Shown: in pieces, positions 3,746-45,532 of the stretch
How positions within the stretch are numbered: the first letter of the stretch is position 1
How the letters are laid out: each line of letters starts with the position of its first letter
Origin: Halichondria panicea
Lineage: Eukaryota > Porifera > Demospongiae > Suberitida > Halichondriidae
Length of the DNA: 64,000 nt
NCBI RefSeq assembly: GCF_963675165.1
Contig: NC_087377.1
Coordinates: 16,968,518-17,032,517 of the forward strand
Reading direction: 5' to 3'
Notes under the pieces: generated by a model
What the model was told of the DNA's origin: nothing
The model's input: only the letters and a program-made list of their open reading frames with translations
Database searches by the model: none
Program-made: the position numbers and the translations under genes

Positions 3746-6551
3746 ATGTCTGACTATCTCACAATAGCAGATCTAGGAGATCTATACATAGCTACGTTTG
3801 ATGCTCGAATCAAGTTGAGAAACTTCTTGCTAGTTCTTAAAATACCCTCGGATATCATTGACAGAATTGGGAAAGATTGGAGCAACAATCCTGATGACTG
3901 CTATCGTGAGGGTTTGAAAGAATGGCTGAAGGGTGAAGAGAGAAGCTGGGAAGATGTTATCAAAGCTTTGTCAAGTCCTATCGTAGGCCATGTTCACTTA
4001 GCCAAGACCATCGAGAAAGATCATCTACAGTCTACTGGTCCAAGCAATCCTACTGATGTGAAGTCAGAGGGTGAGCACACACACACACACACACAATGTT
4101 TTTACAGTTGACGAAAATCACCAGAAGATCAACGATGATTTGACTGTTTTCCTAGACGAGCTACTAGGTAAAGGTGCATTTGGAGCAGTCTTCAATGGTA
4201 GCTACAAGGGCGAGATTTGTGCAGTCAAACTTCTAATTTACGAGGCTGTAGAAATGCAGACAGGTTTCCCAACAGGAAAAAGTGAAGAAGCCAGCAAAGC
4301 ATTTGATCGTGAGTGTGAGTATCTCCAGTCACTCCAGCACCCAAACGTTGTTCTGTATTTATCGACTGCCAAGCATCCCAAATCAGGTGGTACAATCCTC
4401 GTTGTTGAGCTGATGGATTGCAATCTGAGATCCTATTTCTCTAGCCTTGATGAAGAGTCTCTCACTAGCAAATAGGAAATTAGCCTCTCCAAAGACATGG
4501 CTTGTGGTCTGGCCTACATTCACAGCAAGAAGATTATCCACCGTGACCTCTGTGGTGATAAGGTCTTGCTGAAGCTTACACGACCAGTGCCTGTTGCAAA
4601 GATATCCGACTTTGGAATGTCACGGCTATACGATCCCTCCAAGTTTAGCCACACCCTCACAGCCATTGGTCACCGTATGGGGTATCTACCTCTCGAGGCT
4701 ATTCGATTGGGCAAGGAGAATTACGATAATAGCGTCGATGTTTTTTCCCTTGGGGTGATTATGGTACAGATTGTTTGCAAGCTGAAGACGATCAAATCTG
4801 TGGAAGATCGATCATTCCATGTTGCCCAGATACCTCACACACACAGGTTGAGGAAGCTTATCGACAGTTGTTTGCAAGAAGACATGAGGAGGAGACCATC
4901 TGCCAGGGACATCTGTGAGTCAATGATAAGTATAATATTATTATGTGTTTTACGTTTCAGCTATCTGTAACCCTAACGAAAAAATCATGTCCGTCTATTA
5001 ATGTTGGTATCGATTTTAGATACTTACCTGACAACAAGCTCGGACCCAGTGGAGGCAACAAAGAAGGAGTCAAAGGACACTGAACAAGTCAAGAAGGTGC
5101 GTACATGTAGTGTGATAATGAGATTCCCACAGCAACAATAGTATTGTACCTTAACATGCATGGATGCTGTCTCATGTGTTAAGCCGTAATTACACATCCG
5201 TTTGAGTGTGCCTATAATTATGTATACTTCCTTTAGTGAAGACTGTCTCGTTCTGTTATAGAATTTTCTCTAATGTTATTCATGTCTGTGTTTGATTTCC
5301 ACCAACGTTCCCCTGTACAGGCACACAGGGAACAAATTGGGCACAAAATTGGGCACAAAGATGCTGAGCTGGTCAGGAGAGACGCCATCATTCAACAGCA
5401 GAGACAGGTGAGACAAAATGCACCATTATATTATTGCAGAGCTATAGTAGAAGCTTTGATCTCTTATAATCATACTGTACATTCTATTAGACTGGTGGGC
5501 GTGGCTTCTTAAGCTAATTAGAGAAAGTGATTTAGTGTGCATGCAATTATTGCTACAAGTAACACTCGCTTGTTAGTAGACACTATCCTAATTACACTCA
5601 TTCATTATTCAGGGTCCCCCTCCCAGAGAGTTGAGACCTCCACTCACTCTGAAATGGAGAAGAGGAAAAGACATGCCAATCAAGATGGGTGACTCGGTAC
5701 AGAGTGTTGTTATCGGTGACACGGTGTATGTTGGTGGAGGGTTTGCAGTCAATGATCGTGACAAGTGTACGGTGATGAAGCTCGAGCAAGATCAATGGAC
5801 CAAACTACCAGAGTACACTGCCAAGCGCTTCGCTATGACATCACTCGCTAATCGACTAGTGTTGGTGGGAGGAAATAATCCAAGAAACAAAAAACGCACC
5901 AATCAGCTTGCAGTGTTTGAATCAGGGGAATGGACTCACCCGTACCCACCAATGAACATTGCTCGTGATTTCTCAACCGCTGTCTCCTTCAACAACCACA
6001 TCATTGTAGCTGGTGGGGATGATGATAAACGACGTGCCCTCTCCTCTGTGGAGGTGTTGGACGTGGCATCAAGAAGATGGTACATTGCTCAGTCACTACC
6101 TAACCCACGATCAGAACTGAAATCGACTCTCATAGGAAACACCCTCTACCTAATGGGAGGATACGATCACACTCTGAGTGCAACCAAGACAGTGTACCAC
6201 GTCGACCTCACTGAACTCGTCGCAAAGGCCCATTCGAACCTGGACACACCCACTCTCTGGCAGACCTTACAGGAAGTACCACTCGTGTTGTCAGCTCCTC
6301 TCAGTATTGGGAGGTCACTATTAGCCGTTGGTGGATGGGACGGAGACAACTCAAGTTCATCGATCCACCTCTACCAGCCTGACACCAGGAGGTGGGTGAA
6401 AGTGGGAGACCTGCCTACTGCACGATACCGCTGCACATGCTCAGTACTTCCTAGTGGAGAGGTCATTGTAGCCGGAGGAGATAGACAGACAGCAAGTAAT
6501 TATAATATTATTATTCAAACTGTTGATTTCTTCACTATAAGTGCTAATTAG
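3746..6551 (+). pseudogene. Gene A1: Death domain - TKL-like kinase - coil - Kelch propeller, with stop in the kinase
   Basis: Exons: 3741-4070 (ATG at 3746), 4108-4914, 5020-5096, 5321-5407, 5613-6551. The total is in frame (744 codons) apart from one TAG at 4473-4475. Residues 1-108 form a Death domain (MSDYLTIADLGDLY..., W-x-N-N-P-D-D-C, GLKEWL, W-E-D-V). The kinase has a P-loop GKGAFGAV, AVK lysine, HRDLCGD and DFG. A charged spacer and a 29-residue coil (carrying a 12-bp tandem duplication not seen in the other copies) lead to a six-bladed Kelch domain in a single exon. Death plus kinase recalls IRAK/Pelle, but a Kelch C-terminus is not part of that family. Where A2 and A3 read SEC, this copy reads SK-stop, and the catalytic-loop Asn is Lys (HRDLCGDK). 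Read literally it encodes Death plus half an N-lobe. Confidence 0.78.
5613..6551 (+). other. Kelch exon of A1 (six blades)
   Basis: One exon starts GPPPRELRPPLTLKWRRG after a CATTATTCAG acceptor and runs to TAG at 6549-6551. Kelch signatures (a GG pair followed about 20 residues later by W) recur at VYVGG, LVLVGG, IIVAGG, LYLMGG, LLAVGG and VIVAGG. It is the longest of the six Kelch exons in the window because its tail has extra Asn/Ile codons. The exon is open, so it could still act as a donor in gene conversion even if A1 is not translated through. Confidence 0.85.
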
Positions 6552-6750
6552 TTATTTTGTTATATTAATTGTTTCTCTTTAATTGTGCGATGAGTTTATA
6601 ACGATATTTTTTTTATCATGTTGAGAAAATTAAGTTGCAACAGAATTTTATCGCATATAATTATAGTTATTATGATGACATGAAGTGGTACATACATAAT
6701 TACATTGCCAGAAAATAGTACAAAAACAGACAAAATAATATTTAACAGTC

Positions 6751-6869
6751 TCATAACAAGTTCAGGTCCTTGATTGGGGTCTTGTCCGAGGGTGGGGTGG
6801 ACGCCTTCTCCCAGAATCCAAAGTCTATCTCCTCTTCCGAGTCAGACAGTGAGGGGTGGGGCTCGGGAA
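6751..6869 (-). CDS. Last exon of an unidentified minus-strand gene (alpha tail, copy 1)
   Basis: After a CCCTCAG acceptor the frame reads PEPHPSLSDSEEEIDF..WEKAS and ends ..KDLNLL-stop, 39 codons including the stop and starting with two bases of a split codon. The acidic Ser/Glu stretch suggests a CK2-type or sorting motif. Copies occur at 14296-14414, 31266-31384, 39419-39537 and 45733-45851, all open and of identical length, which argues that it was coding. I do not recognise the family. In the beta tails a 17-codon exon lies upstream (14712-14762, 39773-39823). Confidence 0.5.
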
Positions 6870-7400
6870 CTGAGGGGTTAAAGAGTCACATGATCATAGT
6901 CACACTGCATGAGTGGAAGTTTGAGGGCTTAGGAAGTAAGGGGTGAGAAAATCACATGATAACAGTAGCTATAATTTATACTGGCTAAATGCAAAATGGC
7001 TCAACTATGATAAAGGGACACCACACAACACATGTACTGGTATACAATATGTACGTACTTACATGCTGAAGTGCCTACCCACACAAATAATCAAAGTGTT
7101 ATACAATAGTAAGCAGTAGTGTACAATAGTATGTATGATCTGGCTAAGCAAGTAACGGGAGTAATAAAATAAAACTAGACTATAGGCTGAAACTTTTGAG
7201 AAAAGAGTTTTAGTAGAATCATAGACACGTACTTTATTGCACTACATAATTATACTTCCAGTGAAACAGTAAAACTACTACTGTACTCTATAATTTATAG
7301 AACCCCTATAGAGTGACAAGATTAAGTAGGCAATTGCAAGAAAACGTATGTACAGGTATCGATCACTGCAACTCTACACACTAACTGACGTGACACAACT
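6870..7400. other. Alpha-tail spacer, nothing identified
   Basis: A+T-rich sequence shared with 31385-31850 and 45852-46360. I see no coding frame, RNA or transposon ends. It is probably intron or intergenic sequence of the minus-strand gene whose exons flank it. Confidence 0.4.
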
Positions 7401-7402
7401 CA

Positions 7403-7463
7403 CTAGTCGAGCCACTTTGATTTCTTGCTCTTGGACTTAAACAGAGCCGAGTCAGCACTCATC
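7403..7463 (-). CDS. Short C-terminal exon SADSALFKSKSKKSKWLD (alpha tail, copy 1)
   Basis: After a TTGCACAG acceptor the minus strand reads MSADSALFKSKSKKSKWLD-stop, a lysine/serine-rich C-terminus. It recurs open at 31856-31916, 40500-40605 (with a longer N-terminal part, ISTNQVSWTLTPTSADS) and 46365-46425 (stop changed from TAG to TAA). Conservation across four copies supports coding use. The protein family is not recognised. It could be an alternative end of the gene that also uses the exon at 6751-6869. Confidence 0.45.
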
Positions 7464-7871
7464 CTGTGCAACAGAGAACAGTTAGCTACTTAACTTCTTG
7501 GGAGACAATAAAAAGAGTGATTGTGCTTTATCTGCATTCAAGTGGTTGTATAGTGGTAACAGTGTTAGCATGTACCGTAGCAGGTGAGGTGCAACATTTC
7601 ACGTTTTTCGGGGCAGAGCAGCTAACGTGAACATTAAAACTGGGATAAAGCTATTGATGGGTGTGGTTTCCTAACATTGATACGTGAATATTAGACCCCA
7701 TGAACATTTCTGATAGCCCAAGAGCCGCTATACAGCAAAACTAAGGATTATGATGACTGTTTTACAAAACACTACACGATGACCTTTACCTAGTATGCTC
7801 CAATATAATACTAAGATCTTACCTAACATAACACGTTATAATAACAGTAAGTAAATAACAGGACCTTTACC

Positions 7872-8024
7872 TAATAGCGAGAGGTGCTTCTCTTTGTACT
7901 CATTTTTCCGCTCCTTCTCAAAGTCCTTACATAAACTTTTACCTCCAGTTTGGTGAAACAAGCAAAAACGGAATTATTTTGCTCCTGTAGGGTAGAGGCT
8001 GAGGACTCTATAGTCGCCTTGTCT
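7872..8024 (-). CDS. Coiled-coil exons of the alpha-tail minus-strand gene (copy 1)
   Basis: Exon 8024-7943 follows a TGCCACAG acceptor and reads DKATIESSA..LQEQNN..TKLE. Only 17 bases later (GT...AG) a second frame reads DFEKERKNEYKEK..LSLL up to a GTAAAG donor at about 7871. The two frames differ, so either the 17-base piece is removed or the second frame is not used. The related copy is at 32334-32490. Copy 3 in the tail after A3 has lost this section. Acidic/basic alternation suggests a helical coil. Confidence 0.35.
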
Positions 8025-10561: not shown

Positions 10562-13500
10562 ATGTTTTCTTTGCGAGATGATGCTGACTTGAGGGAGTTT
10601 GTGCTGGAGAATGTGGAGCACTTTGGAGAGGAGAGAGTTCTAGGAACTGGCTCCTATGGCTCTGTTCAAGAAGTCAGTCACTAGCACTGCAGGCTCTGTT
10701 TCTGTGCACTGTCTCTAGTGTATATATCTGCTAGCTATTCTAGTGTGACTGCCTCCATGCACAGGTGATGATCAATGGTGAGGTGTATGCAGCCAAGAAG
10801 ATCCACGAGGTTCTCCTGGAGACGGACGAGCGTGGTGGAGTGGCCAACCTAGCTGGGAACTACCGCCGAGAGTGTCGACTCATGGCTCGCATCCGTCACC
10901 CCAACATCACCCAGTTTATTGGGCTGTGTTTCGTTACTGGCTCTCGACTGCCCCTCCTGGTCATGGAGAGGCTAGACTCAAGTCTGGACGATCTCCTGGA
11001 GTCCACCCCCAACATCCCCCTCTCTGTCACCCAGTACATTCTGGTCTGTGTGGCTCGAGGGCTGCTCCACCTGCATCGTGAATCCGTGGTCCATCGTGAC
11101 CTCACTGCCAGGAACGTCCTACTGACGGCATCTCTGAGAGCCAAGATCACAGACTTTGGTAACTCTCGTATCGTGAATCTGGAGCCTGGTCGACTGGCCA
11201 GGACTCTGATGAGGTTTCCTGGGACACTGGTGTACATGCCGCCCGAGGCCCTCTCTGACAGAGGTCACAGTGTGTACGGACCCAGTCTGGACGTCTTCTC
11301 TTTCGGAGTGCTACAACTGTTTGCACTCACACAAGTATGTGTGTAGTTAATGATATTCATAGGTTAGATTCCTGGTGACCTTTCATGCAGTGAATTACCT
11401 TATAAGTATTGTGGTTGTATGTGTTGGGGAGATCCCCCTTTAATATTGTTGACCTTCAGCAAATGCATTTTGTATGTGTATGATTGTGAATATACGTGCA
11501 CTCATTTTCTCCAGACATACATAAAAACAATCATGACAGTCAGTATTCACATGTTCTTTCACTCGTGTCATTGGACTAGGTGTTTCCAGGAGATCTCCTT
11601 GCCCCCACGTACAGCGACCCCAACAACCCAGACCACCTCCTGGCTCGCTCAGAGTTTGAGCGTCGAGGTCCCTACACGGCTCTCCTTGAGAGGAGTCTGG
11701 CGGGTGGACGTGAGCACCCTCTGTTTGGTCTGGTGAGGGAGTGTCTGGCCAACACCCCAGAGAGAAGACCGACCACCGCTGAGCTCCTCTCGTCTCTGGA
11801 GGAGGTGGAGAGGGAGATGGACGGAGGACTGCTCCTGCTGGACATTGGACGAGTGAAGACTGCCAGGACCCTCAGGGCAAAGGAGAAGAGGATAGAGGCT
11901 CTACAGGTGAGTCCAGTCCAGTGAGCTAGTAGGTGCAAGGGTCTGACACTGCATGCTGTACTCTGTTTTCAGAGAGAGGTGGTCCAGAAGGACAGGATAC
12001 TGGAGAGGAAAGATGAGCAAATAGTACAGAAAGATGAACAACTTACTGAGAAAGATGAGCAACTTACTGAGAAAGATGTACTTCTTGTGCAAAAAGACGA
12101 TCAACTAGATCAAAAAGACAGACTTCTGGCACAAAAAGATGAGCTACTTGTTCAAAAAGATGAGGAAGTAGCGGACAAAGATACTCAGCTGGCTAGACTG
12201 CAACAGGTCAGCAGAACCATCGTTTATTTCGTTTATTATAAGCTATTTTGTTCCACGAGCTAACATGTTGATAACCTTTTTTCATACAGGTATTGAATAG
12301 TGTCCGTGCTAATGCTGCCACCAAAGATGGTATGATTGCTGACAAGGACAGACAACTCAGTGAACAAGAGTCAAGGATCACTGATCTCATTTCTCAGAGA
12401 GAGGCTGCTCTAGTTGAGAGGGCCGCTCTCTTACAGGTATTATAGTAGTCACCAAATGCACACACTCTTATACGCTAGTATTATACTACAATAATGATAT
12501 TTGTTTGCGTACATGTAGCTAAGTGTGTCAATGAGATTCCAACAATAGTAGTATACCTCAACAATTGATGCTATTGTATAAATCATGTTAAGCCGCTAAC
12601 TACACATCCGTTTGAGTGTGCCTATAATTATGTACTTCCTTTAGCGGAAATTGTCTCGTTCTGTTGTAGAATTTCCACTAATGATATTCACGTCTGTGTT
12701 TTAGATTTCCACCAACGTTCCCCTGTACAGGCACACAGGGAACAAATTGGGCACAAAGATGCTGAGCTGGTCAGGAGAGACGCCATCATTCAACAGCAGA
12801 GACAGGTGAGACAAAATGCACCATTATATTATTGCAGAGCTATAGTAGAAGCTTTGATCTCTTATAATCGTACTGTACATTCTATTAGACTGGTGGGCGT
12901 GGCCTCTTAAGCTAATTAGAGAAAGTGATTTAGTGTGCATGCAATTATTGCTACAAGTAACACTCGCTTGTTAGTAGACACTATCCTAATTACACTCATT
13001 CATTATTCAGGGTCCCCCTCCCAGAGAGTTGAGACCTCCACTCACTCTGAAATGGAGAAGAGGAAAAGACATGCCAATCAAGATGGGTGACTCGGTACAG
13101 AGTGTTGTTATCGGTGACACGGTGTATGTTGGTGGAAGGTTTGCAGTCAATGATCGTGACAGGTGTACAGTGATGAAGCTCGAGCAAGATCAATGGACCA
13201 AACTACCAGAGTACACTGCCATGTACTTTGCTATGACATCACTCACTAATCGACTAGTGCTAGTGGGAGGAATTGATCCAAAAAACAACAAACGTACCAA
13301 TCAGCTTGCAGTGTTTGAGTCAGGGGAATGGACTCACCCGTACTCACCAATGAACATTGCTCGTAATTCCTCAACAGCTGTCTCCTTCAACAACCACATC
13401 ATTGTAGCTGGTGGGCGTCATGATAAAGGACGTACCTCCTCTGTGGAGGTGTTGGACGTGGCATCAAGAAGATGGTACATTGCTCAGTCACTACCTAACC

Positions 13501-13937
13501 CACGATCAAAACTGTTATCAGCTCTCATAGGAAACATCCTCTACCTAATGGGAGGGTACGATCACACTATGGTGGCAATCAAGACAGTGCACCACGTCGA
13601 CCTCAATGAACTCATTGCAAAAGCCCTTTCCAACCTGGACACACCCACTCTCTGGCAGACCTTACAGGAAGTACCATTCGTGCATTCAGCTTCTCTCAGT
13701 ATTGGGAGGTCACTATTAGCCGTTGGTGGAGCGGACAACAGACGCAACCCAAGTTCATCGATCCACCTCTACCAGCCTGACACCAGGAGGTGGGTGAAAG
13801 TGGGAGACCTGCCTACTGCACGACACAGCTGCACATGCTCAGTACTTCCTAGTGGAGAGGTCATTGTAGCCGGAGGACAGACAAAACCATTGGGTAATTA
13901 TGTTCAAACAGTTGAATTCTTTTGTATAAGCGATTAA
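10562..13937 (+). CDS. Gene B1: TK/TKL-like kinase - long coil - Kelch propeller
   Basis: Seven exons in consistent phase 0: 10562-10672, 10765-11334, 11580-11906, 11973-12206, 12290-12436, 12731-12805, 13011-13937; 796 codons with no stop. Residues 1-37 open the kinase (GTGSYGSV P-loop). Exon 2 has AAKKIHE (lysine), HRDLTARNVLL (close to the tyrosine-kinase loop HRDLAARN), DFGNSR and MPPEA. Exon 3 ends the C-lobe and begins a helix. Exons 4-6 form a roughly 150-residue coil with a 7-residue unit V-Q-K-D-E-Q-L repeated about nine times. Exon 7 is a six-bladed Kelch domain. Presumably it is a cytoplasmic signalling kinase: no signal peptide or membrane segment is visible. The start is the first ATG after an E-box promoter and directly precedes the P-loop; an upstream coding exon cannot be excluded. 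Exons 6-7 are shared with the A genes. Confidence 0.85.
13011..13937 (+). other. Kelch exon of B1
   Basis: Same acceptor and opening residues as the A1 Kelch exon. Six GG/W blades, ending ..NYVQTVEFFCISD-stop. Compared with A1, framework codons are nearly unchanged, while codons after GG (FAV, IDP, RHD, YDH, ADN, QTK) and the codons just before the following strand differ. Confidence 0.85.
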
Positions 13938-18478: not shown

Positions 18479-20042
18479 CAGGGGCGGATCCAGGATTTAA
18501 GGAAGGGGGGTTCTTATAGTAATTCTTGTCCGCGCGCGGGCAAAAAGTTCACTCGGCGCACAGCGCCGAAATTTTTGTGACCACGCCCACTAATTAACCC
18601 TCATGTTCTCCCTCATGATTTATAAACTTTTTTTTTTTTTTTTTTTCTTTATAATGTTTGATGCAGAGGAAGCATACAGGATATGACAAGGTAGCTAAAT
18701 GAAGCTAATAATGAAGTCAGTCCATAACCGAAAAGTAAAGGTGCAGGTGCAGGTGTACTTAAGTGAAAAAAAGAAAAAAGGAAAAATTTTAACTTATTGC
18801 TATAGTTTTGACAGGGATAATTTAAAAGCAGATGGGCTAGGGCTACTGATAACATTTAGGGGAAGGGAATTCCAAATGGGGATTACGCTTACAAAAAAGG
18901 AATGTCTATGGGCTAGGGTTTTAACATGGTTTAAAAATAATTTGATTATGAGGGTGACGGGGGGAAGGGCGAGGATGGAGGGTGAAAACATTGGGAGATA
19001 TTATAGATAAATTATTAAGTATATTAAAGCAGACTTTCAGTTTTTGGTTTTTCCTTCGAGATGACAGAGGTTTCCAGTTTAAGGAGGCAAGCAGGTCAGG
19101 GTATTCTGCCCTCCACTGCTTCGTTACAATTTTCCCTGCAAATTTTTGGACGCTTTCCAGTTTTTTTATATCTGTGTGGTGATGAGGGTCCCAGACTGCA
19201 CCGCAATAGTCTAACTTAGGCAGAACAGCCGTGCGGTAGATCTGGTTCCTGATCTGAGGTGGTGATTTATGGAACTTGCGATGGATGAAGCCAAGATGTT
19301 GTTTGGCCTTCTTGCAGGTGTTGTGTATGTGACATGCCCATTTTAGATCATTATTGACAGTAACACCAAGGTACTTTACAGTATCACATGGGGAGATCCG
19401 ATGGTTGTTTATATCTATATTCATTGGGATAGTGCGTGTAGAGCGAGTTATTGTAAGCAGTTTGGTCTTGGAGTGGTTTGCTGTGAGGCCGTGAGATTGC
19501 ATCCAGGAGTTTATTTCATTGACGTCTCCCTGTAGGTCCTGAGTAAACACAGGAGAGATGGTTGTGACTGGAGGAGAGATAGTAGTGGTCCCCAGTGGAA
19601 AGACAGACGGTGGTGGCTGGTGAAGAGGAGACTTGGCTATAGACTTGTAGAACTTGACCATCAATATATTAATGATTTTATAGCAATTATACATGTAAGT
19701 ATGCAGTGTCATTCAATATGCAGTGTCATGCACTCTCCCTTACCTGAAACTTTCCTCTTCTTACACCAGGAGTCAAGGATGGATTCATGGCTAGATATAA
19801 TAATCACTTGACCACGGTGCAAATCAATGTGGCTGCAGTAGCCAGCCCCACCCTCTTGTTATGTAGAGAGAACCAGCCCCACCCTTTTATTATGCAAAGA
19901 GAACCAGCCCCACCCTTTTATTAAGCAGAGAGGACGTACGTACTTTGTCACGACAGTAGTACAGTTAGCTAGCTAACTAATATATACTAGCTGGAAGGGT
20001 AGTTCGTACGAACCCAACGAACTACCTCTGGATCCGCCCCTG
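18479..20042. mobile_element. Element with CAGGGGCGGATCCAG ends carrying an RT fragment
   Basis: CAGGGGCGGATCCAG at the left and its complement CTGGATCCGCCCCTG at the right bound 1.56 kb. The 5-bp repeat AGCTG is immediately outside both ends (18474-18478, 20043-20047). Ends of this type belong to DNA elements, so the reverse-transcriptase segment inside was probably captured or inserted. There is a (T)22 run near 18629. Confidence 0.6.
18790..19650 (-). pseudogene. Non-LTR retrotransposon reverse transcriptase, C-terminal fragment
   Basis: The minus strand reads QGDVNEINSWMQSHGL (RT thumb side), KYLGVTVNNDLKW, LPKLDYCGAVWDPH and LLASLNWKPLSSRR, all typical of Jockey/CR1-like non-LTR polymerases. 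After a frameshift near 18920-18930 another frame continues with HSFFVSVIPIWNSLPLNV, the usual C-terminal signature. Palm and endonuclease domains are absent. The role in an intact element is target-primed reverse transcription. Here it is a dead relic. Confidence 0.8.
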
Positions 20043-20089: not shown

Positions 20090-22869
<2,780 letters not shown>

Positions 22870-27743: not shown

Positions 27744-28251
27744 GGCCGGCCAGCTAGCTATAGAATATAGATCTAGATCTACCTGATTCTGCAGAGCTAG
27801 CTCAGTGCACCCATAGATAAAAGAGCTCGCTACTTTAGATTAAACTCGGTATAGACTATAGTCAATAGTCACTGCAGCTTACATGCTGACCTTAAGACTA
27901 CTCTAACCATGCGAACCCCCTGAGCTTGCGCATGTACACATGTAGCCTCGATTCGAGGCCGGCCTGAAATCGAGGCTACACGTGTACGTACATTGCATTG
28001 TAATTGTAGTGCTAGTAAAATCTTAGCCTCGATCCCAGGCCGAGTTTAGTAAAATCTGTGCATCAGTTCATATCATGTTGTGAAAATACTGTGGCCTCTG
28101 GATTATTATCAGTGAGTGCAGACAGCTGACAATGAGCTGTTTAACTGTACATGATTTATAGATGTGCCTTGATACAAATTGCACTGCACCGGCCAGAGAG
28201 ATTGCACACATCTATTAAAGAATTTCATTGCTTCCAAACTCTACAGAGAAG

Positions 28252-28651
28252 ATGTCTGACTATCTCACAATAGAAGATCTAGGTGATCTATACATAGCTA
28301 CGTTTGATGCTCGAATCAAGTGGCGAAATTTCTTGCTGGTTCTTAAAATATCCTTGGATACTATCGACAGCATTGGTACGAAATGGAGAGACGATCCTGA
28401 TGACTGCTACTGTGAGGGTTTGAAAGAATGGCTGAAAGGTGGTGAGAGACGCTGGGAAGATGTTGTCAAAGCTTTGTCAAGTCCTATTGTGGGCCACGTT
28501 CACATAGCCAAGACCATCGAGAAAGATCATCTACAGTCTACTGATGCAAGCAATCCTACTGATGTGAAGTCAGAGGGTAAGCACTAGTTCAGCACAGGAA
28601 TGCATATCTCATACATGATGTTAGCTACTATATATTCACCCCCCCCCCCCC

Positions 28652-28694: not shown

Positions 28695-31078
28695 ACACAC
28701 ACAATGTTTTACAGTTGACCAAAATCACCAGAAGATCAATGATGATTTGACTGTTTTCCTAGACGAGCGTCTCGGTAAAGGTGCATTTGGAGCAGTCTTC
28801 AAAGGCAGCTACAAGGGCGAGATATGTGCAGTCAAAGTGCTGCTTCACGATGCTATGGAGATGCAGGCAAGTATTCCTGTCGGCAAAAACGAAGAAGCTA
28901 GCAATGCAATTGATCGTGAGAGTGATTTTCTCAAGTCGTTCCAGCACCCAAACGTTGTTCAGTTTTTGTCGACTGCCAAGCACCCAAAATCAGGGAGTAC
29001 AATCCTCGTTGTTGAGCTAATGGATTACAATCTGAGATCCTATTTCTCTGGCCTTGATGAAGAGTCCCTCACTAGCGAATGTGAAATTAGCCTCATCAAA
29101 GACATGGCTTGTGGTCTGGCCTACATTCACAGCAAGCAGATTATCCACCGTGACCTCTGTGGCGATAACGTCTTGCTGAAGCTAACACGATCAGTGCCTG
29201 TTGCAAAGATTTCTGACTTTGGCATGTCACGGCTATATGATTCCTCCAAGCTTAGCCACACCCTCACAGCCATTGGTCACCGTATGGGGTATCTACCTCT
29301 CGAGGCTATTCGATTCGAAGAGGAGAAATACGATAGCAGCTTGGATGTGTTTTCCTATGGGGCGATTGTGACGCAGATTGTTTGCAGGCTGGGGACGATC
29401 AAATCAGCCAAGGATCGATCATTCCATGTTGCCCAGATCCCTCTCACACACAGGTTGAGGAAGCTTATCGACAATTGCTTACAAGAAGACATGAGGAGGA
29501 GACCATCTGCCAGGGACATCTGTGAGTCAATTATAATTATGTGTTTACGTTGTAACTATAATGATATTCGCTGTATAATGTTGGTTGTTTACTTTAGATG
29601 CTTACCTGACAAGAGGCTCGGACACAGTGGAGGCAACAAAGAGGGAGTCAAAACACACTGGACCAGTCAAGAAGGTGCGTACATGTAGTGTGATAATGAG
29701 ATTCCCACAGCAACAATAGTATTGTACCTTAACATGCATGGATGCTGTCTCATGTTTTAATCACATCCATTTGAGTGTTATGTACTTCCTTGTGAAAATT
29801 GTTGCTTGTTCTTGTTCTGTAGAATTTCCACTAATGATATTCATGTCTGTGTTTTTTAATTCCCTTGTACAGGCACACAGGGAACAAATCGAGCACAAAG
29901 ATGCTGAGCTGGTCAGGAGAGACGCCATCATTCTGAATAACAGCAGAGACAAGTGAGACAAAATACACAATTATTATTATTATTACAGAGCTATAGTAGA
30001 AGCTTTGATCTTATGATCGTACTATACATTCTATTAGACTGGTGGGCGTGTCCTCTTAAGCTAATTAGAGAAAGTGATTTAGTGTGCATGCAATTATTGC
30101 TACAAGTAACACTCGCTTGTTAGTAGACACTATCCTAAATTACACTCATTCATTATTCAGGGTCCCCCTTCCAGAGAGTTGAGACCTCCACTCACTCTGA
30201 AATGGAGGAGAGGAAAAGACATGCCAATCAAGATGAGCTTCTCGGTACAGAGTGTTGTTATCGGTGACACGGTGCATGTTGGTGGAGGTGATGCAGGCTA
30301 TGATCGTGACATGTGTACAGTGATGAAGCTCGAGCAAGATCAATGGACCGAACTACCAGAGTACACTGCCAAGTACTCCACTATGACATCACTCGCTAAT
30401 CGACTAGTGCTGGTGGGAGGACAGGATCCAAGAAACAACAAACGCACCAATCAGCTTGCAGTGTTTGAATCAGGGGAATGGACTCACCCGTACCCACCAA
30501 TGAACATTGCTCGTGATTCCTTAACAGCTGTCTCTTTCAACAACCACATCATTGTAGCTGGTGGGCGTGATGATGAAGTACGTACCTCCTCTGTGGAGGT
30601 GTTGGACGTGGCATCAAAAAGATGGTACATTGCTCAGTCACTACCTAACCCACGATCAGTACTGAAATCGACTCTCATAGGAAACACACTCTACCTAATG
30701 GGAGGGTTCGATCACATTGGGGCAACCAATACAGTGCATCACGTCGACCTCAATGAACTCATTGCAAAGGCCCTTTCCAACCTGGACACACCCACTCTCT
30801 GGCAGACCTTACAGGAAGTACCATTCAAGTGGTCAGCTCCTCTCAGTATTGGGAGGTCACTATTAGCCGTTGGTGGACAGGTCGACAGATTCCACCTAAG
30901 TTCATCGATCCTCCTCTACCAGCCTGACACCAGGAGGTGGGTGGAAGTGGGAGACCTGCCTACTGCACAACTCAGCTGCACATGCTCAGTACTTCCTAGT
31001 GGAGAGGTCATTGTAGCCGGAGGAGAGACAGGTGTATACACTCCAACTGTTGATTTCTTCTCTATAAGTGCTAATTAG
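28252..31078 (+). pseudogene. Gene A2: Death - kinase - coil - Kelch, frameshift in coil exon
   Basis: Exons: 28247-28576 (ATG 28252), 28715-29521, 29598-29674, 29873-29952, 30161-31078. The Death domain (WRDDPDDCYCEGLKEWL) and the whole kinase are open: GKGAFGAV, CAVK, HRDLCGDNVLL, DFGMSR, LPLEA, DVFSYG, RRRPSARD. The coil exon is 80 rather than 75 bases because of a 5-base insertion (ATTC-TGAAT-AACAG), which shifts the Kelch exon out of frame. If that exon is skipped, exon 3b (ending 29674, phase 0) joins Kelch in frame. The donor after the coil exon is CAA|GTGAGA instead of CAG|GTGAGA. Its promoter is separated from the USF copy by the KDZ insertion. The (C)16(AC)n tract before the kinase exon lies in the intron. 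Confidence 0.75.
30161..31078 (+). other. Kelch exon of A2
   Basis: Open for 305 codons after the usual CATTATTCAG acceptor, six blades. Distinct residues at variable sites: KMSFS, GGDAGYD, KYSTM, GGQDP, GGRDDEV, GGFDHIG, FKWSA, GGQVDRFHL, AQLSC, GGETGVY. Framework sequence is near-identical to the other five. Confidence 0.85.
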
Positions 31079-34721: not shown

Positions 34722-37700
34722 ATGTTTTCTTTGCGAGATGATGCTAACTTGAGGGAGTTTGTGCTGGAGAATGTGGAGCACTTTGGAGAGGAGAGAGTTC
34801 TAGGAAGTGGCTCCTATGGCTCTGTTCAAGAGGTCAGTCACTGCATGCTCTGTTTTTGTGCACTGTCTCTAGTGTATCTGCTAGCTATTCAAGTGTGACT
34901 GCCTCCATGCACAGGTGATGATCAATGGTGAAGTGTATGCAGCCAAGAAGATCCACGAGGTTCTCCTGGAGACGGACGAGCGTGGTGGAGTGGCCAACCT
35001 AGCTGGGAACTACCGCCGAGAGTGTCGACTCATGGCTCGCATCCGTCACCCCAACATCACCCAGTTTATTGGGCTGTGTTTCGTTACTGGCTCTCGACTG
35101 CCCCTTCTGGTCATGGAGAGGCTAGACTCAAGTCTGGACGATCTCCTGGAGTCCACCCCCAACATCCCCCTCTCTGTCACCCAGTACATTCTGGTCTGTG
35201 TGGCTCGAGGGCTGCTCCACCTGCATCGTGAATCCGTGGTCCATCGTGACCTCACTGCCAGGAACGTCCCACTGACAGCATCTCTGAGAGCCAAGATCAC
35301 AGACTTTGGTAACTCTCGTATCGTGAATCTGGAGCCTGGTCGACTGGCCAGGACTCTGACGAGGTTTCCTGGGACACTGGTGTACATGCCGCCCGAGGCC
35401 CTCTCTGACAGAGGCCACAGTGTGTACGGACCCAGTCTGGACGTCTTCTCTTTCGGAGTGCTGCAACTGTTTGCACTCACACAAGTATGTGTGTAGTTAA
35501 TGATATTCATAGGTTAGATTCCTGGTGACCTTTTATGCAGTGAATTACCTTATAAGTAGTGTGGTTGTATGTGTTGGGGAGATCCCCCTTTAATATTGTT
35601 GACCTTCAGCAAATGCATTTTATATGTATGATTGTGAATATACGTGCACTCCTTTTCTCCATACATACAGACATACATAAAAACAATCATGACAGTCAGT
35701 ATTCACATGTTCTTCCACTCGTGTCATTGGACTAGGTGTTTCCAGGAGATCTCCTTGCCCCCACGTACAGCGACCCCAACAACCCAGACCACCTCCTGGC
35801 TCGCTCAGAGTTTGAGCGTCGAGGTCCCTACACGGCTCTCCTTGAGAGGAGTCTGGCGGGTGGACGTGAGCACCCTCTGTTTGGTCTGGTGAGGGAGTGT
35901 CTGGCCAACACCCTAGAGAGAAGACCGACCACCGCTGAGCTCCTCTCGTCTCTGGAGGAGGTGGGGAGGGAGATGGACGGAGGACTGCTCCAGCTGGACA
36001 TTGCACGAGTGAAGACTGCCAGGACCCTCAGGGCAAAGGAGAAGAGGATAGAGGCTCTACAGGTGAGTCCAGTCTAGTGAGCTAGTGGGTGCAAGGGTCT
36101 GACACTGCATGCTGTACTCTGTTCTCAGAGAGAGGTGGTCCAGAAGGACAGGATACTGGAGAGGAAAGATGAGCAAATAGTACAGAAAGATGAACAACTT
36201 ACTGAGAAAGATGAGCAACTTACTGAGAAAGATGTACTTCTTGTGCAAAAAGACGATCAACTAGATCAAAAAGACGGACTTCTGACACAAAAAGATGAGC
36301 TACTTGTTCAAAAAGATGAGGAAGTAGCAGACAAATATACTCAGCTGGCTAGACTGCAACAGGTCAGCAGAACCAGTTTATTTCGTTTATTATAAGCTAT
36401 TTTGTTCCACGAGCTAGCATGTTAATAACCTTTTTTTATACAGATATTGAATAGTGTCCGTGCTAATGCTGCCACCAAAGATGGTGTGATTGCTGACAAG
36501 GACAGACAACTCAATGAACAAGAGTCAAGGATCACTGATTTCATTTCCCAGAGAGAGGCTGCTCTAGTTGAGAGGGCCGCTCTCTTACAGGTATTATAGT
36601 AGTCACCAAATGCACACACTCTTATACGCTAGTATTATACTACAATAATGATATTTGTTTGCGTACATGTAGCTAAGTGTGTCGATGAGATTCCAACAAT
36701 AGTAGTATACCTCAACAATTGATGCTATTGTATAAATCATGTTAAGCTGCTAAATACACATCCGTTTGAGTGTGCCTATAATTATGTACTTCCTTTAGCG
36801 GAAATTGTTGTTCTCGTTCTGTTGTAGAATTTCCACAATGTTATTCACGTCTGTGTTTTAATTCAAAGATTTCCACCAACGTTCCCCTGTACAGGCACAC
36901 AGGGAACAGACTGAGCACAAAGATGCTGAGCTGGTCAGGAGAGACGCCATCATTCAACAGCAGAGACTGGTGACACAAAATGCACCATTATATTATTGCA
37001 GAGCTATAGTAGAAGCTTTGATCTCTTATAATCGTACTGTACATTCTATTAGACTGATGGGCGTGGCCTCTTAAGCTAATTAGAGAAAGTGATTTAGTGT
37101 GCATGCAATTATTGCTACAAGTAACACTCGCTTGTTAGTAGACACTATCCTAATTACACTCATTCATTATTCAGGGTCCCCCTCCCAGAGAGTTGAGACC
37201 TCCACTCACTCTGAAATGGAGAAGAAGAAAATACATGCCAATCAAGATGGGTACCTCGGTACAGAGTGTTGTTATCGGTGACACGGTGTATGTTGGTGGA
37301 GGTAGTGCAGACAATGATCGTGACAGGTGTACAGTGATAAAGCTCGAGCAAGATCAATGGACCAAACTACCAGGGTACACCACCAAGTGGTTTGCTATGA
37401 CATCACTCGCTAATCGACTAGTGCTGGTGGGAGGACATGATCCAAGAAACAACAAACGCACCAATCAGCTTGCAGTGTTTGAATCAGGGAAATGGACTCA
37501 CCCGTACCTACCAATGAACATTGCTCGTTCTTCCTCAACAGTTGTCTCCTTCAACAACCACATCATTGTAGCTGGTGGGCGTAATGAAGAACCTACCTCC
37601 TCTGTGGAGGTGTTGGACGTGGCATCGAGAAGATGGTACATTGCTCAGTCACTACCTAACCCACGATCAGGACTTAAATCGACTCTCATAGGAAACACCC

Positions 37701-38101
37701 TCTACCTAATGGGAGGGTGGGATCACACTGGGTGTGCAACCAAGACAGTGCACCACGTCGACCTCAATGAACTGATTGCAAAGGCCCATTCGAACCTGGA
37801 CACACCCACTCTCTGGCAGACCTTACAGGAAGTACCACTCATGTGGTCAGCTCCTCTCAGTATTGGGAGGTCACTATTAGCCGTTGGTGGACGAGACGAC
37901 AGACGCAACCCAAGATCATCGATCCACCTCTACCAGCCTGACACCAGGAGGTGGGTGAAAGTGGGAGACCTGCCTACTGCACGATACTGCTGCACATGCT
38001 CAGTAGTTCCTAGTGGAGAGGTCATTGTAGCCGGAGGACAGACAAAACTGTTTACTGCATATACTCCAACTGTTGATTTCTTCTCTATAAGTGCTAATTA
38101 G
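34722..38101 (+). CDS. Gene B2: TK/TKL-like kinase - long coil - Kelch propeller
   Basis: Exons 34722-34832, 34915-35484, 35736-36062, 36129-36362, 36444-36590, 36895-36969, 37175-38101. Lengths are identical to B1 in every exon (796 codons) and open throughout. The kinase differs from B1 at few sites, one of them inside the catalytic loop: HRDLTARNVPL against HRDLTARNVLL. The coil has D-to-Y in ADKYTQL, and the last coil exon ends QRL rather than QRQ. The Kelch exon shows its own set of variable residues (GGSADND, TKWFAM, GGHDP, RSSSTV, GGRNEEP, GGWDHTGC). A Pro next to the loop could weaken activity, but the rest looks functional. Confidence 0.85.
37175..38101 (+). other. Kelch exon of B2
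   Basis: Six blades, 308 codons, ending TPTVDFFSISAN-stop. The block from RNNKRTNQLAVF to GGRNEEPTSS is shared exactly with the orphan exon 250 bp downstream, so the two have exchanged or duplicated sequence recently. Confidence 0.85.
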
Positions 38102-38350
38102 TTAATTTGTTAAAAATTGCTTCTCTTTGATATTGTGCGTTAACGATAATTATGAATTTTTTTATTATGTTCTAAAGTTGCAACAGAATTTCATCGTACA
38201 TAGTTAATACGATGGCATGAAGTGGTACGTACAAGAACAAACAAAGTAATATTTAACAGTTGGTTTCTCTTTGCAATCTTGATATTATTATCTTGCATGT
38301 CGGAAAAAAAACTTTTTTATTAAGTCCAACAAAAATATGACATAAGACAT

Positions 38351-38999
38351 TCCAAGAAACAACAAACGCACCAATCAGCTTGCAGTGTTTGAATCAGGGA
38401 AATGGACTCACCCGTACCTACCAATGAACATTGCTCGTTCTTCCTCAACAGTTGTCTCCTTCAACAACCACATCATTGTAGCTGGTGGGCGTAATGAAGA
38501 ACCTACCTCCTCTGTGGAGGTGTTGGACGTGGCATCAAGAAGATGGTACATTGCTCAGTCACTACCTAACCCACGATCAGTACTGAAATCGACTCTCATT
38601 GGAAACATCCTCTACCTAATGGGAGGGTACGATCACACTGGGTGGGCAACCAAGACAGTGCACCACGTCAACCTCAATGAACTCATTGCAAAGGTCCTTT
38701 CCAACCTGGACACACCCACTCTCTGGCAGACCTTACAGGAAGTACCACTCGTGTGGTCAGCTCCTCTCAGTATTGGGAGGTCACTATTAGCCATTGGTGG
38801 GCGGGAAGACAGAGCCAACCCAAGTTCATCGATCCACCTCTACCAGCCTGACACCAGGAGGTGGGTGAAAGTGGGAGACCTGCCTACTACACGATATTGC
38901 TGCACATGCTCAGTACTTCCTAGTGGAGAGGTCATTGTAGCCGGAGGACGGACAGATTCATTTGAAACTGTTGATTTTTTCTCTATAAGTGCTAATTAG
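38351..38999 (+). pseudogene. Orphan partial Kelch exon
   Basis: It begins abruptly inside blade 2 (CCAAGAAACAACAAACGCACC) with no acceptor or upstream coil exon and stays open to TAG. The first 230 bp equal B2; after PNPRS it diverges to its own variable residues (VLKSTLIGNI, GGYDHTGWA, GGREDRANP, TTRYCC, GGRTDSFETVDFF). No head exists for it, so it is either debris of unequal crossing-over or a reservoir for conversion of the other Kelch exons. Confidence 0.75.
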
Positions 39000-39333: not shown

Positions 39334-39418
39334 GTTATTATGATGACATGAAGTGGTACATACATAATTACATTGCCAGAAAATAGTACAAAAACAGACA
39401 AAATAATATTTAACAGTC

Positions 39419-41816: not shown

Positions 41817-42617
41817 CACACATTAAATCCTCAGGTCTAGTAGGGAGAAAACACGTGAATAGTACTTACTACGAATTAGGGCCTAACAATAATAACTGTA
41901 CACACACAAGCACGTCTTCAAACACTGCACATGTAACCAAGGCAATGGCTATAATAGTCTCAAGCAACTTCACCATAACACGACCCCTGGCTATATAAGG
42001 TCAAATACTTGTGTCATTAGAGCCCTTGTCAGAGCTTGCTACATGACGGTAGTCTACTGGCGCACTCTTCAACATACTATTTAAAAGTTTCAAACAGCTT
42101 TCCGGACAATCTAAACAAAATCAAATGCGTCCTATAGGAATAGTGTACATGAAAATGTTGGCAGTAGGTATATCCTATCAGGCTATTAAATAACAACACT
42201 ATCACTCACTCATCATCCTGAGTTTGTCATCAGACTTGCATCTTTACGAGCAGCTTCGTCATGTAGGATCATCTGATTGGACAGGAACTTGCCATTCCCA
42301 CCTCCTCAGCAATGGTCTCTCTCCAGGCTATGGTCCTGGCTATGTCACTGTGGCTCACAATAGGACTGGACAAAGCCTCCAGCCCCTCGCTCCATCCCAG
42401 GCAATAGATTTTGGTCATGCTTCAAAACGTGATTTGCTGATTCATCATTGTTATTGCAGATCTGGTAGACGACAAGTATTGTTTTTTCTACTTGCTGCGA
42501 TCTGAATAAAGTCTCTGGATTTAATCAGTGAGTAGTGCAGACAGCACTGATTACAATGTACATGATTCAGATGCAATTTTTGGCTCTATACATTCATACT
42601 TATCTTTTACAGAGAAG

Positions 42618-43034
42618 ATGTCTGACTATCTCACAATAGCAGATCTAGGAAAACTATACATAGCTACGTTTGATGCTCGAATCAAGTGGCGAAACTTCTT
42701 GCTGGTTCTTGAGATATCCTCGGATACCATCGACAGCATTGGTACGAAATGGCGAGATGATCCTGATGACTGCTATCGGGAGGGTTTGAAAGAATGGCTG
42801 AAAGATGGGGAGAGACGCTGGGAAGATGTTGTCAAAGCTTTGTCCAGTCCCATCGTGGGCCACAGTGACATAGCTAATACCATCGAGAGAGATCATCTAC
42901 AGTCTACTGATGCAAGCAATCCTACTGATGTGAAGTCAGAGGGTAAGCACTAGTTCAGCACAGGAATGCATATCTCATACATGATGCTTAGTTTATTAGC
43001 TAGCTACTATAATATTCACCCGGGTCCCTCTCAT

Positions 43035-43069
<35 letters not shown>

Positions 43070-45532
43070 GTTTTTACAGTTGACGAAAATCACCAGAAGA
43101 TCAACGATGATTTAACTGTTTTCCTAGACGAGCTACTTGGTAAAGGTGCATTTGGAGCAGTCTTCAAAGGCAGCTACAAGGGCGAGATTTGTGCAGTCAA
43201 ACTTCTAATTTACGAGGCTGTAGAAATGCAGACAGGTTTCCCAACCAGCAAAAGTGAAGAAGCCAGCAAAGCATTTGATCGTGAGTGTGAGTATCTCCAG
43301 TCACTCCAGCACCCAAACGTTGTTCTGTATTTGTCGACTACTAAGCACCCCAAATCAGGTGGTACAATCCTCGTTGTTGAGCTGATGGATTGCAATCTGA
43401 GATCCTATTTCTCCGGCCTTGATGAAGAGTCTATCACTAGCGAATGTGAAATTAGCCTGTCCAAAGACATGGCTTGTGGTCTGGCCTACATTCACAGCAA
43501 GAAGATTATCCACCGTGACCTCTGTGGTGATAACGTCTTGCTGAAGCTAACACGACCAGTGCCTGTTGCAAAGATTTCCGACTTTGGCATGTCACGGCTA
43601 TATGATCCCTCCAAGCTTAGCCACACCCTCACGGCCGTTGGTCACCGTATGGGGTATCTACCTCTCGAGGCTATTCGATTGGACAAGGAGACTTACGATA
43701 ATAGCGTGGATGTGTTTTCCCTTGGGGCGATTATGGTACAGATCGTTTGCAAGCTGAAGACAGTCAAATCTGTGGAAGATTGATTAGACCATGTTGCCCA
43801 GGTCCCTCACACACACAGGTTGAGGAAGCTTATCGACAGTTGTTTGCAAGAAGACATGAGGAGGAGACCATCTGCCAGGGACATCTGTAAGTCAATTAGT
43901 GTTGTACATTTTACCGCAAATAATTTGTAAGTCAATTTGTGTGTTGTACGATTCCGAAATTTTATTCGGAAAAAGTTCCTTATTGAAGATTTAACTTTTA
44001 CTTTAGATGCTTCACTGACAAGCGACTCTGACACAGTGGAGGCAACAAAGAGGGAGTAGTATTATACTACAATGATGATATTTGTTTGCGTACATGTAGC
44101 TAAGTGTGTCGATGAGATTCCAACAATAGTAGTATACCTCAACAATTGATGCTATTGTATAAATCATGTTAAGCTGCTAAATACACATCCGTTTGAGTGT
44201 GCCTATAATTATGTACTTCCTTTAGCAGAAATTGTTGTTTGTTCTCGTTCTGTTGTAGAATTTTCTCTAATGTTATTCATGTCTGTGTTTGATTTCCACC
44301 AACGTTCCCCTGTACAGGCACACAGGGAACAAATTGGGCACAAAGATGCTGAGCTGGTCAGGAGAGACGCCATCATTCAACAGCAGAGACAAGTGAGACA
44401 AAATGCACCATTATATTATTGCAGAGCTATAGTAGAAGCTTTGATCTCTTATAATCGTACTGTACATTCTATTAGACTGGTGGGCGTGGCCTCTTAAGCT
44501 AATTAGAGAAAGTGATTTAGTGTGCATGCAATTATTGCTACAAGTAACACTCGCTTGTTAGTAGACACTATCCTAATTACACTCATTCATTATTCAGGGT
44601 CCCCCTCCCAGAGAGTTGAGACCTCCACTCACTCTGAAATGGAGAAGAGGAAAAGATATGCCAATCAAGATGGGTACCTCGGTACAGAGTGTTGTTATCG
44701 GTGACACGGTGTATGTTGGTGGAGGGTTTGCAGTCAATGATCGTGACATAATTTATGTACAGTGATGAAGCTCGAGCAAGATCAATGGACCAAACTACCA
44801 GAGTACACTGCCAAGTTTTTCGCTATGACATCACTCGCTAATCGACTAGTGCTGGTGGGAGGACGTCATCCAAGTATCAACAAACGCACCAATCAGCTTG
44901 CAGTGTTTGAATCAGGGGAATGGACTCACCCGTACCCACCAATGAACATTGCTCGTTGTTCCTCAACAGCTGTCTCCTTCAACAACCACATCATTGTAGC
45001 TGGTGGGTATGATGATAAAGGACGTACCCTCTCCTCTGTGGAGGTGTTGGACGTGGCATCAAGAAGATGGTACATTGCTCAGTCACTACCTAACCCACGA
45101 TCAAAACTGAAATCGACTCTCATAGGAAACACCCTCTACCTAATGGGAGGGTGGTATCACACTGTGATGCCAACCAAGACAGTGCACCACGTCGACCTCA
45201 ATGAACTGATTGCAAAGGCCCTTCCCAACCTGGACACACCCACTCTCTGGCAGACCTTACAGGAAGTACCACTCGTGCGGTCAGCTCCTCTCAGTATTGG
45301 GAGGTCACTATTAGCCGTTGGTGGACGGGACGACAGTGTCAACCCAAGTTCATCGATCCACCTCTACCAGCCTGACACCAGGAGGTGGGTGAAAGTGGGA
45401 GACCTGCCTACTGCACGAGACTGCTGCACATGCTCAGTACTTCCTAGTGGAGAGGTCATTGTAGCCGGAGGACTGACAGATTCATTTCTTTATATTCAAA
45501 CTGTTCATTTCTTCTCTATAAGCACTAATTAG
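42618..45532 (+). pseudogene. Gene A3: Death - kinase - Kelch, A/B chimera with stops
   Basis: Exons: 42613-42942 (ATG 42618), 43080-43886, 44007-(truncated), 44318-44392, 44598-45532. The Death domain is open. The kinase is open to the C-lobe (HRDLCGDNVLL, DFGMSR), then TGA at 43781-43783 replaces the CGA of A1/A2 (a CpG-type change), removing the last roughly 35 residues. In exon 3b A-type sequence ends at AGGGAG (44056) and continues with TAGTATTATACTACAA, which is gene-B intron sequence: a recombination joint that adds a TAG and removes the donor. The Kelch exon has a net 5-base insertion (GACATAATTTATG for GACAGGTG) near 44745, shifting frame in blade 1. Three independent lesions make a functional full-length product unlikely. 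The Death domain plus most of the kinase could still be made. Confidence 0.78.
44598..45532 (+). other. Kelch exon of A3 (frameshifted in blade 1)
   Basis: From 44762 the frame is open to TAG with its own variable residues (KFFAM, GGRHPSI, RCSSTA, GGYDDKG, GGWYHTVMP, LVRSA, GGRDDSVN, ARDCC, GGLTDSF). Only the roughly 50 codons upstream of the shift are detached. Confidence 0.8.

What the first reader, a model, noticed from the sequence alone, without database searches (positions are those of the whole stretch)
5613..45532. Kelch exons vary at codons matching the Keap1-type ligand pocket
Six Kelch exons (5613, 13011, 30161, 37175, 38351, 44598) are nearly identical, even at silent sites, except at a few codons per blade. 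After GG: N/I/Q/H/R in blade 2, D/R/R/R/R/Y in blade 3, Y/Y/F/W/Y/W in blade 4, W/A/Q/R/R/R in blade 5, D/Q/E/Q/R/L in blade 6. In the loop 14-16 residues before GG: D/D/F/T/T, R/Y/Y/W/F, D/N/D/S/C, E/K/V/G/V/K, L/H/W/W/W/R and R/S/S/C/C/C. By counting back from GG, these loop sites fall on or beside the positions of Keap1 S363/S555, and the GG+1 sites on those of Keap1 Y334/R380, which line the substrate pocket. Nearly all changes there alter the amino acid, often by two or three bases per codon. This pattern suggests diversifying selection or targeted exchange of a recognition surface fused to Death/kinase signalling, possibly an invertebrate self/non-self or pathogen sensor. The exact blade alignment is mine by eye.
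Basis: partly seen in the sequence, partly recalled or inferred. Interest (0 to 1): 0.92.

Follow-up and report, generated by a model that had tools for sequence, protein, structure and literature searches.

The report
Shuffled hypervariable Kelch receptor gene family
An unnamed animal-like genome holds well over a hundred near-identical sensor domains that differ mostly in the pocket where such domains usually grip their targets, and the same sensors sit behind several different signalling parts, which looks like a home-grown recognition system similar in logic to one known in fungi.

Summary
Confirmed, and larger than reported. The 131 Mb genome holds 171 copies of a conserved segment of this Kelch exon. 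In 78 distinct exons 25 codons are hypervariable (6-13 residues each); 24 of 25 lie in DA/BC loops with hand-set borders, 20 of 25 with strict model strands, none in AB/CD loops. DA/BC loops are the substrate face of Kelch propellers. Nonsynonymous diversity at the 25 codons is 6.5 times framework silent diversity, 2.6 times their own. Third codon positions vary less, favouring selection over codon-targeted mutation. Linkage decays within about 100 bases; exons behind kinase A, kinase B and a third N-terminus are not distinguishable. Kinase B stays conserved (piN/piS 0.04). Best reading: an intracellular recognition-receptor family under gene conversion plus diversifying selection, the logic of fungal HNWD receptors in another fold and kingdom. 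Ligand, expression, variation between individuals and species are unknown. Two of the six reported exons are damaged, no A-type gene of the window is clearly whole, and single-tree dN/dS is unreliable here.

The parts
3746..4070 (+). Death-like exon of A-type gene 1 (start codon 3746, GT donor after 4070; borders by eye)
   Evidence: Pfam Death only weak, and on a sister copy; weak PDB profile hits, 10 of 11 FADD
4108..4914 (+). kinase exon of A-type gene 1 (borders by eye); has an in-frame TAG
5321..5407 (+). linker exon (29 aa), shared with B-type genes (borders by eye)
5613..6551 (+). Kelch exon 1, six blades, intact
10562..10672 (+). B-type gene 1, exon 1 (start codon, glycine loop of kinase)
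10765..11334 (+). B-type gene 1, kinase exon (HRD and DFG motifs by eye)
11580..11906 (+). B-type gene 1, presumed kinase C-lobe exon
   Evidence: not scanned on its own
11973..12206 (+). B-type gene 1, coiled-coil-like exon (KDEQL-type repeats; coil by eye)
12290..12436 (+). B-type gene 1, coiled-coil-like exon (by eye)
12731..12805 (+). B-type gene 1, shared linker exon
13011..13937 (+). Kelch exon 2 (B-type), intact; the model is one 796-aa frame, 7 exons, GT-AG at all six introns
28243..28584 (+). Death-like exon of A-type gene 2 (extent of tblastn match)
28711..29530 (+). kinase exon of A-type gene 2 (approximate), no in-exon stop
30161..31078 (+). Kelch exon 3 (A-type), intact; the linker exon before it has a small insertion (by eye)
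34894..35493 (+). kinase exon of B-type gene 2
37175..38101 (+). Kelch exon 4 (B-type), intact
38346..38999 (+). 5'-truncated Kelch copy, tandem duplicate of 37434-38210 at 90%
42600..42950 (+). Death-like exon of A-type gene 3 (Pfam Death E 0.047, below cut-off)
43073..43978 (+). kinase exon of A-type gene 3 (extent of tblastn match); in-exon stop at query position 241
44598..45532 (+). Kelch exon 6 (A-type), frameshifted near 44747

Best explanation
A large germline-encoded family of intracellular recognition receptors. The C-terminal six-bladed Kelch propeller is the sensor; N-terminal modules (Death or Death-like plus kinase, kinase plus coiled coil, or an unidentified 384-aa domain) are the effectors. 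Shown: about 25 codons, mostly on the pocket face, are far more diverse than silent sites; recombination has left linkage only over tens of bases; Kelch exons with different heads form one pool; kinase B is strongly conserved. Inferred: mutations in the pocket codons are favoured because new pockets bind new ligands; short gene-conversion tracts reshuffle them among more than a hundred cassettes; ligand binding clusters the proteins through the coiled coil and activates the kinase or Death module, starting a defence or rejection response. A pathogen or symbiont ligand is put ahead of a self ligand because of copy number and per-copy uniqueness, without direct evidence.
For: Copies: 171 segments within 3 mismatches, reversed-pattern control 0; 125 of 127 scored exons have no stop (458 candidates at first look). 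Selection: HV piN / framework piS 6.5, bootstrap 6.0-7.1; 20 disjoint closest pairs give HV dN / all dS 10.9; sites chosen on other contigs 5.7. Surface: 0 of 25 HV codons in AB/CD loops; 24 of 25 in DA/BC loops with hand-set borders, p 1.2e-10; 20 of 25 strict, p 2.4e-6; 19 of 20 without the last part of blade 6, p 4.8e-8. Papers (passages): these loops form the substrate face. Replication on C6/C28/C12: 15 of the top 25 sites shared, p 1e-12. Exchange: r2 0.054 below 30 bases, 0.013-0.019 beyond, 0 of 1000 permutations reach the short-range value; A against B Fst-like 0.001, 361 of 1000 shuffles as high; three classes 0.013, 132 of 1000; in A genes Kelch framework piS 0.053 (12 genes) against 0.167 in the kinase and 0.247 in the Death exon (14 loci). 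Constraint: kinase B piN/piS 0.04, 7 genes. 77 of 78 exons have unique 25-residue HV strings; Y, W, F and R are enriched there.
Against: No ligand, transcript, cell location or individual was tested. HV sites were chosen and measured on the same data (searches are the independent checks), and piN/piS inside HV codons alone is 2.6, since silent diversity there is raised too (0.18 against 0.073; third-base differences between codons with equal first two bases 0.120 against 0.053). Linked balancing selection would do this, but so would mild local mutagenesis. In B genes the kinase exon has the same silent diversity as the Kelch framework (0.062 and 0.064), and nearby B introns are less divergent than the Kelch exon (0.2-3.6% against 5-8%), so stronger homogenisation of Kelch is shown only against A-type heads; import from a shared pool would explain both. 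The C1 Death-like exon is below the Pfam cut-off. None of the three A-type genes in the window is clearly whole (kinase stop; linker insertion by eye; kinase stop plus Kelch frameshift). The site-wise model used one tree although recombination is heavy. Framework piN/piS is only 0.61.
Confidence: 0.65

Rival explanations
1. Allorecognition: the Kelch sensors tell self from non-self tissue, as fungal HET-D/HET-E do, rather than sensing microbes.
For: Same evolutionary signature as HNWD genes (passages of PMC1805685, and PMC12222747); nearly every exon has its own pocket string.
Against: No polymorphic self ligand identified; no individuals compared; over 100 specificities in one genome fit microbes at least as well (inference).
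Confidence: 0.17
2. Substrate selection: each Kelch directs its kinase to a different endogenous substrate, and the family is ordinary functional divergence of paralogues.
For: Kelch domains commonly select substrates (passages); framework piN/piS 0.61.
Against: HV piN within the C1 copies (0.469) is nearly as high as between C1 and other contigs (0.497) although silent divergence nearly doubles (0.064 against 0.115); sharing of one pool between gene classes would break fixed kinase-substrate pairs.
Confidence: 0.1
3. Targeted or templated mutagenesis (retroelement-type or conversion-coupled) writes the pocket codons.
For: Variation sharply confined to codons; several sites are almost only NNC or NNT, as in adenine-template systems; raised silent diversity at HV codons and slightly beside them.
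Against: Third positions less variable than first and second (0.23 against 0.46 and 0.54); other sites are NNG or NNA; none of 78 copies looks like an AAN template (at most 6 of 25), though 78 is under half of the 171 segments; 4-fold sites within two codons barely raised (0.062 against 0.046).
Confidence: 0.05
4. Relaxed constraint or pseudogene decay in a recent repeat family.
For: Broken members in the window and one broken kinase (L027) outside.
Against: 125 of 127 scored exons open; kinase B piN/piS 0.04; diversity above silent and concentrated on one face.
Confidence: 0.02

Closest known systems
Podospora anserina HNWD/NWD NLR genes (het-d, het-e), WD40 propellers with high internal conservation
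   Same: Beta-propeller sensor, near-identical framework by concerted evolution within and between genes, a few codons under diversifying selection on the interaction face, signalling N-terminus (passages of PMC1805685; PMC12222747).
   Different: WD40, not Kelch; NACHT and HET domains; 10 members and four codon positions per repeat there. Here Kelch, kinase/Death effectors, 171 segments, and exchange between genes rather than repeat exchange within a gene (the last contrast is inferred).
IRAK/Pelle and RIPK kinases (Death domain plus kinase)
   Same: Death before kinase in A-type genes. PDB matches of kinase B: an EGFR chain first, a plant lectin receptor kinase, then many IRAK4 chains; of kinase A: the same EGFR chain, then CTR1, LIMK1, Eph receptors and B-Raf.
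   Different: Those have no Kelch sensor and are few and conserved (recalled).
BTB-Kelch proteins (Keap1, KLHL12, KLHL20)
   Same: Six-bladed Kelch fold; Foldseek TM about 0.7; pocket formed by the same loop classes.
   Different: No BTB seen in the exons scanned; in malaria K13 the DA and BC loop positions are the most conserved (passage of PMC6650413), here the most variable.
Plant highly variable NLRs, sea urchin 185/333, snail FREPs
   Same: Multi-copy diversified recognition genes (titles and abstract openings only).
   Different: Other folds; a sensor cassette shared by several effector classes is not typical of them (recalled).

Membership tests
HNWD-type NLR | WD40 repeats as sensor | tested here: not met
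   Pfam gives Kelch families for the exon, no WD40
HNWD-type NLR | NACHT nucleotide-binding domain | tested here: not met
   none in the Death-like, kinase, Kelch and type C exons scanned; coil, linker and kinase C-lobe exons not scanned
HNWD-type NLR | concerted evolution of the sensor between genes | tested here: met
   against A-type heads; not visible against B kinase silent sites
HNWD-type NLR | few codons under diversifying selection on the propeller's binding face | tested here: met
IRAK/Pelle-like kinase | kinase domain of the TKL group | tested here: inconclusive
   Pfam Pkinase and PK_Tyr_Ser-Thr; PDB matches mix IRAK4, CTR1, B-Raf with tyrosine kinases; no kinase tree was built
IRAK/Pelle-like kinase | N-terminal Death domain | tested here: inconclusive
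   over the Pfam cut-off before A kinases at C28:39634 (64.8 bits) and C6:731163 (54.7); C1 copies weak and without tblastn similarity to those; none in the B model by eye
BTB-Kelch | six-bladed Kelch propeller | tested here: met
BTB-Kelch | BTB/BACK domains | tested here: not met
   B model runs from kinase through coils to Kelch; none in the exons scanned
Diversity-generating retroelement target | template with AAN codons, adenine-specific changes | tested here: not met
   at most 6 of 25 HV codons are AAN in any of 78 copies; NNG and NNA sites vary too; no reverse-transcriptase search was made

The most novel reading that the evidence does not exclude
An animal uses a Kelch propeller as a germline combinatorial recognition cassette: one pool of more than a hundred pockets, reshuffled by short-tract gene conversion and shared by at least three different signalling heads (Death-like plus kinase A, kinase B plus coil, and a new 384-aa N-terminus; a fourth with a different Death domain at two loci on C6/C28), giving a repertoire of pockets that is independent of the effector it drives.
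Probability: 0.5. Interest if true: 0.94.

Novelty: new variant of a known kind. Interest (0 to 1): 0.85.

Why it matters
Hypervariable propeller sensors are established in fungi. The same logic in what is most likely an animal, in another propeller fold and with Death/kinase effectors, would be a convergent way of making recognition diversity without somatic rearrangement. It also makes an open question testable: 25 named codons predict ligand-binding residues, so individuals, sister species and binding screens can be compared directly.

Tried and rejected
Rejected: codon-targeted or adenine-templated mutation as main cause; relaxed constraint. A pseudogene array: many kinase A matches show stops, but the query ran into the next intron; in the 15 A-type loci checked, only the two in the window have stops inside the exon, and L027 matches only query 3-239, so it is broken too; the other loci were not checked. 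Haplotype copies: not formally tested; copies lie at distinct places on C1, C6, C12 and C28. No effect of physical distance on Kelch difference in the C1 array (Spearman 0.03, p 0.15). Led nowhere: no relatives in GTDB or viral contigs; no Pfam or PDB match for the type C N-terminus; no paper found on such genes (listings); species not identified (listing only).

Rows dropped: 94 exon matches extracted from fetched loci and window, 7 pieces dropped as partial, stopped or frameshifted, 78 distinct kept; columns present in 90% of rows or fewer left out (301 kept). Of 77 placed exons 8 had no kinase A/B within 6.5 kb upstream; 7 of them were assigned to type C by positions, one left out, and the one unplaced exon was set to B by hand. 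Loop borders were set by hand in blade 6, where the model has low confidence; one search gives the strict version.

Full report
What was checked. The window is C1:16968518-17032517 of an unnamed 131 Mb genome with 39 contigs.

Scale. One Kelch exon as query gives 127 scored matches (458 candidates at the first look), 125 without an internal stop, mostly in two blocks of C1 (15.48-16.14 Mb, all minus; 16.71-17.39 Mb, all plus), with others at C1 11.0 Mb and on C6, C12 and C28. A conserved 40-base Kelch segment occurs 171 times within 3 mismatches, 0 for the reversed control; a 45-base linker segment 142 times, control 0. Kinase B gives 48 of 150 scored matches at 84% identity or more, kinase A 114 of 129 at 73% or more, the type C N-terminus 12 of 119 matches at 90% or more on C1. 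Kinases A and B are about 32% identical.

Variation. 78 distinct exons were aligned. Twenty-five codons were called hypervariable (posterior mean nonsynonymous rate above 1.9 in a home-made FUBAR-like grid on one tree; 40 of 301 sites have P above 0.9). They carry 6 to 13 residues each; 59 of the other 276 sites are invariant. Because linkage is broken, tree-based rates are not trusted and diversity measures are used. HV piN is 0.4745, HV piS 0.180, framework piN 0.044, framework piS 0.073: HV piN is 6.5 times framework piS (bootstrap 6.0-7.1) and 2.6 times its own piS; 20 disjoint closest pairs give HV dN / all dS 10.9. Sites chosen on 18 distinct C6/C28/C12 copies and measured on 70 C1 copies give 5.7. 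The two groups share 15 of their top 25 variable sites, p 1e-12; over all sites the rank correlation of entropy is 0.48.

Place on the fold. An AlphaFold model from four window exons (mean pLDDT 76.7, pTM 0.81; the other four models 76.7 to 43.7) is a six-bladed propeller, best matched by SAKe designs, KLHL12 and Keap1. With loop borders set by hand, 24 of 25 HV codons lie in DA or BC loops, the last being the second residue of strand A6. By strict DSSP it is 20 of 25, because four sites near the low-confidence end of blade 6 fall into long strands; leaving that end out it is 19 of 20. In every version none lies in an AB or CD loop. Chosen by structure alone, DA+BC codons have piN/piS 1.90 against 0.55 and 0.65 elsewhere. 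Passages of PMC6720452 and PMC6650413 state that BC and DA loops shape the substrate surface or the bottom-face pocket. In K13 those positions are the most conserved; here they are the most variable.

Selection or mutation. At HV codons the diversity of first, second and third positions is 0.457, 0.542 and 0.231; at 103 4-fold framework sites it is 0.044. Third-base differences between 4-fold codons with equal first two bases are 0.120 at HV codons, 0.053 elsewhere, and 0.187 at HV codons with different first two bases; 4-fold sites within two codons of an HV codon have 0.062, farther ones 0.046. Selection on amino acids with hitch-hiking explains this best; mild local mutagenesis is not excluded. 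None of the 78 copies resembles an adenine template.

Exchange. r2 falls from 0.054 (under 30 bases) to 0.019 (30-100) and 0.014-0.017 beyond for framework sites, and likewise for HV sites; 0 of 1000 site permutations reach the observed short-range value. In the main C1 array, exons behind kinase A (38) and kinase B (23) do not differ detectably (Fst-like 0.001, 361 of 1000 shuffles as high); with 24 B and 7 type C the value is 0.013, 132 of 1000. An A gene and a B gene of the window match over 1,357 bases at 92% from the intron before the linker exon through most of the Kelch exon, with no match upstream. In A genes silent diversity is 0.247 in the Death exon and 0.167 in the kinase (14 loci) but 0.053 in the Kelch framework (12 genes). 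In seven B genes the kinase exon has piN 0.0027 and piS 0.062, the Kelch framework piS 0.064 and the HV codons piN 0.42: so Kelch is more homogeneous than its head in A genes but not in B genes, where nearby introns are even less divergent (0.2-3.6%). HV piN is 0.469 within C1 and 0.497 between C1 and other contigs, while framework piS goes from 0.064 to 0.115. Together these indicate one exchanging pool with retained pocket diversity.

Architecture. A B gene splices in silico into one 796-aa frame over seven exons with GT-AG at all six introns: kinase, coil-like repeats, linker, Kelch. By eye it has no signal sequence; an intracellular place is inferred. A genes have a Death-like exon before the kinase; the C1 version is weak by Pfam (E 0.047 in one of three copies) and by PDB profile (10 of 11 weak hits FADD). 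On C28 and C6 clear Death domains (64.8 and 54.7 bits) stand just before A kinases; tblastn finds no similarity to the C1 exon. The third head is a 384-aa open exon without Pfam or PDB match. None of the three A-type genes in the window is clearly whole.

Interpretation and comparison. A hypervariable binding face, concerted evolution between genes and a signalling N-terminus are what passages of PMC1805685 and PMC12222747 describe for the Podospora HNWD receptors. This works like them but is not a member: no WD40, no NACHT in the exons scanned. It is not a BTB-Kelch protein. That it senses microbes or other individuals is inferred. Searches of the held open-access library listed no description of such genes. 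Leads only: a Kelch-motif gene and Death-containing kinases are among sponge transcripts that respond to microbial signals (passages of PMC6208332; PMC8242945). That the genome is an animal follows from the Death domains and kinases by general knowledge; that it is a sponge is my guess; no call tested either.

Noticed in passing
G000 C1:15.48-16.14 Mb and 16.71-17.39 Mb: The Kelch array has opposite orientation in its two halves; some exons are identical in distant places, e.g. one sequence at three places (L046, L047, L048).
   Followed up: partly
L011:4479-5633; relatives on C5, C9, C2, C4, C7 and others: The 384-aa N-terminal domain of type C genes, without Pfam or PDB match, has many diverged relatives elsewhere in the genome (119 matches).
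   Followed up: partly
G000 C3:0.87-1.71 Mb and C11:4.4-6.5 Mb: Further large arrays of kinases related to kinase B at about 45-51% identity, the C3 one also with a strand flip.
   Followed up: no
C28:39634-39861 and C6:731163-731405: At these two loci the A kinase carries a canonical Death domain without tblastn similarity to the C1 one: heads may be swapped too.
   Followed up: partly
window 38346-38999: A truncated Kelch copy directly behind an intact one could be a conversion donor; no other was recognised among the fetched loci.
   Followed up: no
window 21554-21710 and 52965-53449: A 39-copy GTGC repeat and a 239-bp tandem duplication.
   Followed up: no
window 18921-19712 (-), 48574-49569 (+), 56817-57455 (-): Long frames that by eye look like pieces of retroelements or transposons; only the second was scanned and had no Pfam match.
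   Followed up: no
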